From assembly GCA_944325025.1 (NCBI GenBank), contig CALUYN010000018.1, forward strand, positions 1-35,489: 35,489 nt of DNA, read 5' to 3'. A program made the translations under genes and the position numbers. The stretch's first letter is position 1. The number at the start of each line of letters is the position of its first letter. Origin of the DNA: Candidatus Gastranaerophilales bacterium. Its GTDB lineage: Bacteria > Cyanobacteriota > Vampirovibrionia > Gastranaerophilales > Gastranaerophilaceae. A model generated the notes under the pieces. It saw only the letters and a program-made list of their open reading frames with translations. It did no database searches and was not told where the DNA came from. Positions 1 through 35,198 of this stretch are shown here, one piece after another.

Positions 1-353
1 TGTTATATCTCAGTTAAAATTTATACAGCACATTTAAAATCAGAATAGCAATTTTAAAAAATTTATCGGGATGTAGCACTCTGCCGAGCAAACGATTGAG
101 TATCGTTTGCGAGAGGTAATGGTAGCGCCTTGCTATTCTGTTATATCTCAGTTAAAATTTATACAGCACATTTAAAATCAGAATAGCAATTTTAAAAAAT
201 TTATCGGGATGTAGCACTCTGCCGAGCAAACGATTGAGTATCGTTTGCGAGAGGTAATGGTAGCGCCTTGCTATTCTGTTATATCTCAGTTAAAATTTAT
301 ACAGCACATTTAAAATCAGAATAGCAATTTTAAAAAATTTATCGGGATGTAGC
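1..353. repeat. 138-bp tandem repeat, 2.56 copies, ending inside tRNA-Pro
   Basis: Units begin at 1, 139 and 277. The first two are identical over all 138 bases; the third runs identically to 353 and then becomes the body of tRNA-Pro. Each unit carries the tRNA upstream flank plus the first 11 nt of the tRNA (CGGGATGTAGC), then about 60 nt not present in the tRNA. Those 60 nt contain a perfect hairpin (GCAAACGAT, 5-nt loop, ATCGTTTGC) and end with TTGCTATTCTG, the inverse of CAGAATAGCAA upstream in the same unit. Copies may continue left of the window. No open frame of note was seen here. Confidence 0.95.
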
Positions 354-416
354 GCAGTCTGGTAGCGCACCGTGTTCGGGTCGCGGGGGTCGCAAGTTCG
401 AATCTTGTCATCCCGA
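343..416 (+). tRNA. tRNA-Pro (CGG)
   Basis: A 74-nt cloverleaf. The acceptor CGGGATG (343-349) pairs with CATCCCG (409-415), and A416 is the discriminator. The anticodon stem CCGTG/CGCGG closes the loop TTCGGGT, giving anticodon CGG. The T arm is GCAAG-TTCGAAT-CTTGT. It is followed by a T run (417-423) that would terminate transcription. Its first 11 nt are repeated twice upstream in the tandem array. Confidence 0.95.
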
Positions 417-464
417 TTTTTTTATATTAAAAAATTTTTCACCTTAAATATAATACTCAAATAT

Positions 465-21688: not shown

Positions 21689-21999
<311 letters not shown>

Positions 22000-31118: not shown

Positions 31119-31154
31119 CAGTTTGCAAAAGTGATAAATATATAGAAATTTTAT

Positions 31155-31211
<57 letters not shown>

Positions 31212-31227
<16 letters not shown>

Positions 31228-31476
31228 AGTTAAAGGACAGGATATTATTCCTGTCCTTTAACTTGGTTAAGGCGAGAACCACAAGGCGCAAGCCTTGTCA
31301 GGTTCGAACGCGAACGAGCTGAAGGCGAAGGCTTGCCGGCAAAATGATGTGAATCATAGCAGCCGGCAACCGCAGACCTGTTAAATGCGAGAGAGCAAGA
31401 CAGCCCCTCTGAGCCCAGAATAAATGACAGGAAAAACATCCTGTCATTTATTTTAACCAGGCGAGAACCACAAGGC
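31212..31476 (+). repeat. tRNA-3'-end-associated element at tRNA-Lys: ~130-nt hairpin element between copies of the tRNA end
   Basis: The last 16 nt of tRNA-Lys (31212-31227) recur exactly at 31402-31417 (AGCCCCTCTGAGCCCA). Each copy is followed by a similar hairpin ending in GACAGGA/TCCTGTC (31227-31264 and 31419-31452) and then GGCGAGAACCACAAGGC (31271 and ~31460). Between lies a 131-nt element (31271-31401): ACAAGGC-gcaa-GCCTTGT (31281-31298); GTTCG-AACG-CGAAC; and TTGCCGGC (31333-31340) pairing with GCCGGCAA (31362-31369) around an inner ATGAT-gtga-ATCAT. Period 190 bp. The second hairpin has a T-run and can terminate transcription. Confidence 0.92.
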
Positions 31477-31515
31477 AAAACAGTGTTATATTTAATTATG
31501 ATTGCTTATTGCATT

Positions 31516-35022: not shown

Positions 35023-35109
35023 AGAGGGGTGTCCGAGCGGTTTAAGGTGCAATCTTGGAAAGGTTGTGTGGGAGCAATTCCACCGTGGGTTCGAATCCCA
35101 TCCCCTCTG
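35023..35109 (+). tRNA. tRNA-Ser (GGA)
   Basis: 87 nt with a long variable arm (GTGGGAGCAATTCCAC). Acceptor AGAGGGG/CCCCTCT, discriminator G35109. The anticodon stem CAATC/GGTTG closes TTGGAAA, anticodon GGA. A T-run (35110-35115) follows. A weak promoter TTGAAC-N16-TATTAA (34988-35015) would start transcription almost at the tRNA. Confidence 0.95.
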
Positions 35110-35138
35110 TTTTTTGTAATTTATATATAATATTGAGG

Positions 35139-35198
35139 GATGAGAACCACAAGGCGGAGCCTTGTCCGGTTCGAGCGCGAACGAGCTGAGGGCGAAGG
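35139..35198 (+). repeat. Truncated tRNA-3'-end-associated element at tRNA-Ser
   Basis: The first 60 nt of the element found after tRNA-Lys and tRNA-Met: GATGAGAACC, hairpin ACAAGGC-gga-GCCTTGT, CCGGTTCGAGCGCGAAC, GAGCTGAGGGCGAAGG. It stops abruptly at 35198; no second copy of the tRNA end follows. The stretch to 35321 shows nothing else recognisable. Confidence 0.88.

What the first reader, a model, noticed from the sequence alone, without database searches (positions are those of the whole stretch)
31212..31476. A ~130-nt hairpin-rich element inserted at the tRNA-Lys 3' end, bounded by copies of the tRNA end
Seen: the last 16 nt of tRNA-Lys reappear exactly 190 nt downstream, each followed by a hairpin and GGCGAGAACCACAAGGC, with a 131-nt non-coding element between. 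The same element occurs after tRNA-Met and tRNA-Ser in this window. Known: tRNA 3' ends are classic targets of tyrosine-recombinase elements, which restore the tRNA end. Here the element encodes nothing, so it would be non-autonomous, or it spreads through another mechanism such as reverse transcription of a tRNA-linked transcript. Being transcribed directly behind a tRNA, it could be released by tRNA processing as a small RNA.
Basis: partly seen in the sequence, partly recalled or inferred. Interest (0 to 1): 0.88.

Follow-up and report, generated by a model that had tools for sequence, protein, structure and literature searches.

The report
Guide-bearing RNA elements invading tRNA genes
Behind many tRNA genes of an uncultured gut and rumen bacterial family sits a short non-coding element with a conserved RNA fold that repeats the tRNA's last 15 letters on its far side and carries a short stretch complementary to the very tRNA it adjoins, although it makes no protein that could move it.

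Summary
In detail: the unit follows tRNA-Lys and tRNA-Met in full and tRNA-Ser truncated. Same-genus contigs match records titled Candidatus Gastranaerophilales. A covariance model finds the element in 115 of 146 genomes of the order and 22 times here, behind many tRNA types and tmRNA. The insert is bounded by two copies of tRNA nt 59-73; at tRNA-Asp, 6 of 9 loci with both copies carry CCA only downstream, 1 only upstream, 2 on both. The window's own Lys locus cannot tell. Most units carry a 12-13-nt stretch complementary to both sides of nt 58/59 in their own tRNA's T-arm (0 of 10,000 permutations reach it); it matches the tRNA better than the element's own strand (29 against 3 of 45 cells). 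The core folds as RNA with strong covariation; Rfam gave no match. RT, Y1 transposase and tyrosine-integrase counts do not follow element counts. Most likely: a non-coding, RNA-structured mobile element targeted by base pairing to tRNA loops. Enzyme and movement are inferred. A mirror form lies in D-arms.

The parts
31154..31228 (+). tRNA-Lys(CTT), intact; nt 73 at 31227, no encoded CCA
   Evidence: ARAGORN, Rfam tRNA 73.6 bits
31213..31227 (+). tRNA nt 59-73, left copy (part of the intact tRNA)
   Evidence: which Lys copy is original is not decided
31228..31264 (+). terminator-like hairpin between tRNA and element; the same hairpin occurs without the element in L186
31271..31280 (+). guide GGC-GA-GAACC, complementary to T-arm GGTTC(GA)GCC of this tRNA
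31276..31305 (+). P1/P2 hairpin (GAACC-ACAAGGC..GCCTTGT-GGTTC)
31308..31396 (+). structured core (P3 with tandem G.A pairs, P4, P5, P6)
   Evidence: model R1 149.7 bits at 31269-31407; covariation; fold z -4.25
31397..31402 (+). AAGACA, right boundary motif (58 of 73 right junctions)
31403..31417 (+). second copy of tRNA-Lys nt 59-73 (right copy)
31418..31454 (+). second terminator-like hairpin
31460..31476 (+). truncated second unit (guide plus ACAAGGC)
21926..21999 (-). tRNA-Met(CAT), intact
21753..21889 (-). element behind tRNA-Met: guide 21878-21889, T-arm strand and core from 21858 down, AAGACA 21758-21763, P0 strand 21753-21757
   Evidence: 150.8 bits; fold z -5.78
21743..21757 (-). second copy of tRNA-Met 3' end (one substitution)
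21689..21706 (-). truncated second unit behind tRNA-Met
35023..35109 (+). tRNA-Ser(GGA), intact
35137..35198 (+). truncated element behind tRNA-Ser (guide 35137-35148, P1, start of core; no right copy found)
1..341 (+). probable mirror form: tRNA-Pro 5' end running into another core in the D-arm (at 65 and 203), upstream of intact tRNA-Pro

Best explanation
The feature is one copy of a family of small, non-coding, RNA-structured mobile elements of Gastranaerophilales. SHOWN by comparison (most clearly at tRNA-Asp): the element lies between two copies of tRNA nt 59-73, so that an intact tRNA stands on the left and a loose 3' end on the right; genomes without it have a single end. In most Asp cases the right copy keeps the native CCA and terminator, so the insert lies inside the original gene at nt 58/59 and the left end is the newcomer. 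Most units carry a stretch complementary to the T-arm of their own tRNA on both sides of that point (nt 65-59 and 56-51), usually with a non-complementary GA opposite nt 57-58. The core behind it is a conserved RNA fold, for this core family on the tRNA strand in every case seen. INFERRED: the stretch is a guide that pairs with the tRNA gene or pre-tRNA and selects the insertion point, much as group I/II intron or IS608 guides do; an enzyme supplied in trans performs the insertion; the 15-nt repeat is a target-site duplication; an RNA or the transcribed strand is the active form.
For: Empty sites: at tRNA-Asp, 15 element-free loci with at least 400 nt downstream have one end with CCA; 6 loci have the left end without and the right copy with CCA. 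Blastn to empty sites resumes on the right at nt 58/59 (L213 against L222, L230 and L232; L215 against L239, L235 and L241; L216 against L237 and L233). Among 73 right copies of this core family (85 elements) CCA is right-only in 10, left-only in 0, both 5, neither 58. Guide: Watson-Crick matches to the own tRNA exceed all of 10,000 permutations for nt 59-65 and for nt 51-53 (67 distinct elements); at nt 53-51 where tRNA and the element's own strand differ, the guide pairs with the tRNA in 29 and with its own strand in 3 of 45 cells. RNA fold: 33 of 38 pairs with changes on both sides, 620 double-changed cells against 151 in shuffles; G.T 48 against A.C 15 outside P0, one G.U pair kept in 102 of 106 rows; no Rfam match. 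Orientation: 82 of 142 hits have a same-strand tRNA or tmRNA within 300 nt upstream, 0 an opposite-strand one. Patchy presence: 29 of 34 genus genomes, 0-43 copies.
Against: No enzyme was found; RT, Y1 and integrase counts do not follow element numbers. One genome per species, so no insertion was caught as a polymorphism. The opposite order exists with other cores: CCA left-only in Asp L236, whose left CCA and terminator equal those of element-free genomes, and in tmRNA L251 and L257. At Lys none of 6 loci with two copies has CCA, 18 of 24 loci without a second copy lack CCA too, and L186 has the window's left hairpin without the element. Some other cores are antisense (L225, L106, L111, L173, L269, L271). 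Alignment A4 is fitted to the model, which favours G.U over A.C; P0 shows no such bias (27 and 27). The permutation test treats related elements as independent. 13 of 22 hits in this genome are core-only. tmRNA elements have poor 5' guides.
Confidence: 0.5

Rival explanations
1. Classical site-specific recombination: minimal att-type elements of T-loop-targeting integrases, mobilised in trans. The cognate nt 59-73 in the element is the attP core; the complementary stretch is an arm site or an accident.
For: Same insertion place and same displaced repeat as ssrA islands of Dehalococcoides, where a serine recombinase inserts in the tmRNA T-loop and a 15-nt motif precedes the 20-bp repeat (PMC3146451, passages). 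Tyrosine recombinases occur in all 34 genus genomes. Tandem arrays occur.
Against: No ORF of 90 aa or more in the Lys insert; integrase counts do not follow element counts (rho 0.05), and element-rich G010 (26) and G013 (19) have 2 and 1 integrase hits. One core family fits many tRNA types plus tmRNA, mostly with the cognate end and a cognate guide. Serine recombinases were not searched.
Confidence: 0.23
2. A splicing RNA: the insert is intron-like; the guide aligns tRNA nt 58 with the displaced nt 59 as group I P1/P10 pairing does, and splicing joins the tRNA to the second end.
For: The guide is complementary to both sides of the junction; RNA-type covariation; sense orientation of this core family.
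Against: No group I or II family match; the boundary is AAGACA in 58 of 73, not a terminal G. The left copy already completes the tRNA, and several displaced acceptor parts have decayed.
Confidence: 0.08
3. Two independent processes: partial tandem duplication of tRNA 3' ends by recombination, plus a REP- or RPE-like palindrome (the core) inserted in the duplicated T-loop.
For: Core-only copies exist (13 of 22 in this genome), several directly behind stop codons; different cores occupy the same platform and the order of native and new end varies.
Against: It does not explain the stretch complementary to the cognate tRNA, nor clean empty sites with a break at nt 58/59.
Confidence: 0.15
4. Host-beneficial regulatory RNA at 3' ends (stability or processing), spread mainly by descent and gene conversion; the pairing sequesters the loose tRNA end.
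For: Conserved fold; sense orientation at tRNA ends and mostly at protein gene ends.
Against: Patchy presence between species, empty sites with intact CCA, 0 to 43 copies per genome.
Confidence: 0.1

Closest known systems
tRNA/tmRNA-integrating islands (ssrA islands of Dehalococcoides; PMC3146451, passages seen)
   Same: Insertion in the T-loop, gene 3' end restored, displaced repeat downstream, tandem arrays, short motif just before the repeat
   Different: No integrase gene in the element; about 190 nt; RNA fold; target-matched complementary stretch; many tRNA types with one core family
Group I and group II introns (abstract starts only: PMC3984707, PMC2882425; details recalled)
   Same: Structured RNA; short guide pairing across the insertion point (IGS P1/P10, EBS/IBS)
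   Different: No match to Rfam intron models; tRNA intact without splicing; no relation to RT; target repeat on both sides
IS608 (IS200/IS605) and IS110 bridge-RNA systems (abstract starts only: PMC5934647, PMC11208160)
   Same: Target chosen by base pairing with a short element-encoded guide
   Different: No transposase in the element; Y1 hit in 7 of 34 genus genomes, IS110 not searched; 15-nt repeat; target is the tRNA T-arm
Rickettsia palindromic elements and REP sequences (recalled; search listings only)
   Same: Short palindromic dispersed repeats, also at protein genes
   Different: Here a complex RNA fold, fixed position in tRNA loops, a guide and a target repeat

Membership tests
Integrative elements at tRNA 3' ends | Displaced direct repeat of the tRNA 3' end and restored gene | tested here: met
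   right copy in 73 of 85, 48 identical over 15 nt; empty sites
Integrative elements at tRNA 3' ends | Element encodes its integrase | tested here: not met
   no ORF of 90 aa or more within the Lys insert; a 117-aa antisense ORF spans the Met tRNA and element and was not studied; one Leu locus carries a Fic-like ORF, judged by eye
Group I intron | Catalytic core recognised by covariance models | tested here: not met
   no such match for the window at gathering or for 31200-31500 at E<=5
Group I intron | Self-splicing | not testable with these tools
   needs RNA
Group II intron / retroelement | Domain V model match or RT in the genome | tested here: not met
   no Rfam match; RVT_1 in 13 of 34 genomes, none in own genome, unrelated to copy number
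REP/RAYT or IS200-IS605 | Y1 transposase available | tested here: inconclusive
   Y1_Tnp in 7 of 34 genomes including own; unrelated to copy number
Guide-targeted element | Guide sequence complementary to own target | tested here: met
Guide-targeted element | Guide change redirects insertion | not testable with these tools
   needs experiment

The most novel reading that the evidence does not exclude
A previously undescribed class of protein-less, guide-bearing RNA parasites of tRNA genes: structured elements that choose the T-loop (and, in a mirror form, the D-arm) of a given tRNA by base pairing across the insertion point, are inserted by machinery in trans, and leave the gene intact through a target duplication; several different cores share the same guide platform.
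Probability: 0.33. Interest if true: 0.95.

Novelty: categorically new. Interest (0 to 1): 0.82.

Why it matters
tRNA genes are common docking sites for bacterial mobile DNA, but known residents bring an integrase tied to one site (recalled, and PMC3146451). Here one RNA family occupies many tRNA types and tmRNA, most copies with a cognate complementary stretch. If that stretch guides insertion, it is a compact, naturally diversified targeting system without a protein of its own. The new RNA fold can be tested at once, and at least one copy (L139) suggests recombination between elements at different tRNA loci.

Tried and rejected
Reverse transcription of tRNA-linked RNA: CCA on displaced copies first looked like a mark of mature tRNA, but element-free sister genes encode CCA, so it is ancestral DNA. 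RT, Y1 transposase and tyrosine integrase as movers: no relation to copy number. Rfam relatives: only chance matches. Viral contigs: 0 matches for two core patterns. Pattern hits in L146 (sediment MAG) and L172 (Myxococcales MAG) are not elements (seen; no model match); L115 (titled Fusobacterium) holds an element behind tRNA-Asp and is probably mis-binned. tRNA-Stop in L155 looks like a miscalled tRNA-Lys. A first own-strand test misplaced some strands and was redone. Literature: nine searches listed no description of this element in titles and abstract starts; most lists were capped at 8-15 papers and the library lacks most subscription papers.

For this I lowered the best explanation from 0.55 to 0.5 and the novel case from 0.35 to 0.33, and raised the two-process rival from 0.12 to 0.15 and the integrase rival from 0.22 to 0.23. 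The D-arm guide count was also corrected (6 of 8, not 5).

Rows dropped: of 161 rows were entered for (15 left out: 13 cut-off, short or low-scoring rows, and L106 1184 with its duplicate L171 213); 142 remained after removing identical ones. That set is biased, being fetched by motif or model. The 38 core-only sites still contain some tRNA-type ones (L090, L101, L103, L109, L151, L178 at least). The output was cut, so parts of it were not seen.

Full report
Observation. The last 16 nt of tRNA-Lys (31212-31227) recur 190 nt downstream at 31402-31417, with hairpins and GGCGAGAACCACAAGGC after both, and the same layout follows tRNA-Met; tRNA-Ser has a truncated copy without a right-hand tRNA end. 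With one mismatch allowed, GAGAACCACAAGGC occurs 5 times in the 1.76-Mb assembly, all in this contig, against 0 in the reversed control.

Host and spread. A motif scan of named genomes gave 71 stretches, many titled Candidatus Gastranaerophilales or Melainabacteria; two of them have the contig number and length of same-genus contigs (G008:C153, 9,030 nt; G027:C2, 318,734 nt). A covariance model (R1) from 16 aligned copies finds matches in 29 of 34 genus genomes, 0 to 43 each, 360 in all, and in 115 of 146 genomes drawn from the order, 111 of the 115 in the window's own family. In the own genome there are 22 matches: 7 behind a called tRNA, 2 with a tmRNA-like 3' end copy but no tmRNA called within 700 nt, 13 core-only.

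Anatomy. Reading on the tRNA strand: intact tRNA; a spacer (31 of 67 spacers of 10-120 nt hold a perfect 8-bp inverted repeat); a guide (for example GGGAT-GA-GAACC); a hairpin closed by GAACC/GGTTC; TTCGA; the core; AAGACA; tRNA nt 59-73 again. The core has P3 made of GCGARYGAGC against GCGARYGAGC, in which tandem G.A pairs flank a mostly covarying RY/RY step; in 3 of the 16 first sequences one tandem G.A is replaced by C-G and G-C, in a fourth it is broken. It continues into P4/P5 with a 3x3 internal loop. On 107 distinct rows 95.2% of cells pair, 33 of 38 pairs have double changes and 620 cells are double-changed (151 in shuffles, 59-93 in slid controls); the MAFFT alignment of 16 gives 62 against 19.9, although further pair types there (25) do not exceed shuffles (27.7). 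One pair is G.U in 102 of 106 rows, and outside P0 G.T (48) exceeds A.C (15), as expected of RNA on this strand; P0 gives 27 and 27. Alignment A4 was fitted to the model, which leans this way. Minimum-energy folds have z -4.25 (Lys), -5.78 (Met), -3.65 and -2.45. No Rfam family matches the core.

What was inserted where. Of 142 distinct model hits entered have a same-strand tRNA or tmRNA within 700 nt upstream, of types Met, Lys, Leu, Arg, Ser, Asp, Ala, Gly, His, Asn, Gln, Tyr, Thr, Val and tmRNA. In 73 of the 85 a right copy of nt 59-73 is found, 48 identical over 15 nt; 58 of the 73 are preceded by AAGACA; CCA is right-only in 10, left-only in 0, both in 5, neither in 58. At tRNA-Asp in the genus, 15 element-free loci with at least 400 nt downstream have one end with CCA, and 9 of 30 loci have a second copy: CCA right-only in 6 (L213-L217, L228), left-only in 1 (L236), both in 2 (L225, L238). 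In L215, L217 and L228 the native terminator stands behind the right copy; in L236 and L225, which hold other cores, it stands behind the left copy. Right-hand homology to empty sites resumes at nt 58/59 (L213/L222, L213/L230, L213/L232, L215/L239, L215/L235, L216/L237). For tmRNA, of 4 loci with two copies CCA is right-only in 1 (L258, with the native flank of L253 and others), left-only in 2 (L251, L257), both in 1 (L256). At Lys, 6 of 30 loci have second copies and none has CCA; of the 24 without a second copy, 6 have CCA and 18 do not, and L186 shows the window's left hairpin without the element. So for this core family the insert mostly lies inside the original gene at nt 58/59 with the left end as newcomer; the finding's own Lys locus does not decide it, and with other cores the order can be reversed. 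A CCA-adding enzyme domain is found in 33 of 34 genus genomes, so a CCA-less tRNA gene is workable.

The guide. With an anchor independent of the tRNA (78 of 85 elements, 67 distinct), Watson-Crick matches to the own T-arm are 3.82 of 5 for nt 59-63 (permutation mean 2.81, maximum 3.22) and 2.49 of 3 for nt 51-53 (1.79, maximum 2.04); none of 10,000 permutations reached either. The own arm scored highest among 26 arms in 33 of 67 elements, ties included. The dinucleotide opposite nt 57-58 is GA in 57, AA in 7, TA in 3 of 67; the anchor allows only these. Related elements are not independent, and nt 59-65 also recur in the right copy, so the sharper test is nt 53-51: where the tRNA and the element's own GGTTC strand differ, the guide pairs with the tRNA in 29 and with its own strand in 3 of 45 cells (65 distinct combinations; 9 of 85 elements skipped). 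Where left and right copies differ in nt 59-65 (11 elements, 15 cells), it is Watson-Crick with the left base in 9 and with the right in 4. The stretch could still be selected for another reason than targeting.

Orientation and other sites. 82 of 142 hits have a same-strand tRNA or tmRNA within 300 nt upstream, none an opposite-strand one. Core-only copies near gene ends are mostly sense: within 25 nt 14 on the 5' side against 3 on the 3' side, within 75 nt 17 against 7, of 38 sites; two sites count on both sides within 25 nt and some of the 38 are tRNA-type. Several cores start at a stop codon (TAGCGCGAG).

Other cores on the same platform. At tRNA-Asp, tmRNA, Lys and Arg, other cores (GCGGATTTGCGGACGG..., GAGGCTGGAGC...) sit behind similar guides, several ending in AAGACA; one (L225) is antisense. 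A further core (ACTCTGCCGAG-hairpin-CGAGAGG) lies in the D-arm of displaced 5' ends of tRNA-Met, Leu and Pro, upstream of the intact tRNA, and antisense in the T-loop of Arg and tmRNA 3' ends.

Mechanism. The two tRNA ends, the empty sites and the complementary stretch are shown by comparison. That the stretch directs insertion, and that machinery acts in trans, is inferred. RT, Y1 transposase and tyrosine integrase do not follow copy number; serine recombinases and IS110 were not searched.

Known relatives. The nearest described pattern is ssrA islands of Dehalococcoides, inserted in the tmRNA T-loop by a serine recombinase with a 20-bp repeat (PMC3146451, passages); these encode the recombinase. 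A survey of structured RNAs in 26 genomes (PMC8632094, term passages only) has no mention of Gastranaerophilales or Melainabacteria.

Noticed in passing
window 1-417: 138-nt direct repeats (starts 1, 139, 277) upstream of tRNA-Pro; two of them contain the tRNA-Pro 5' end running into a hairpin core in the D-arm: a mirror form of the finding.
   Followed up: partly
L183, L184, L189, L196, L201-L203, L205 (and L206, L210): D-arm elements upstream of tRNA-Met, most with stretches complementary to nt 13-22 of tRNA-Met; present also in genomes without family-1 elements such as G007 and G016.
   Followed up: partly
L139 6672-6808: One element has tRNA-Ser(cga) on its left and a tRNA-Met 3' end on its right, as if two elements had recombined.
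   Followed up: no
L142 1500-3300: A Fic-like ORF (305 aa, opposite strand; named from its HPFVDGNGR motif, recalled, not searched) lies between two Leu(cag) units, the second with two cores in tandem.
   Followed up: no
L212, L251: Two insertions of another core family have a run of about 9-10 C at the right junction.
   Followed up: no
L081 and L096 (behind a gene that looks like nusG): A core sits at the stop codon; in L081 the gene end is repeated upstream with another insert, resembling the tRNA case in a protein gene.
   Followed up: no
L115: A contig titled Fusobacterium holds a Gastranaerophilales-type element; probably mis-binned.
   Followed up: partly
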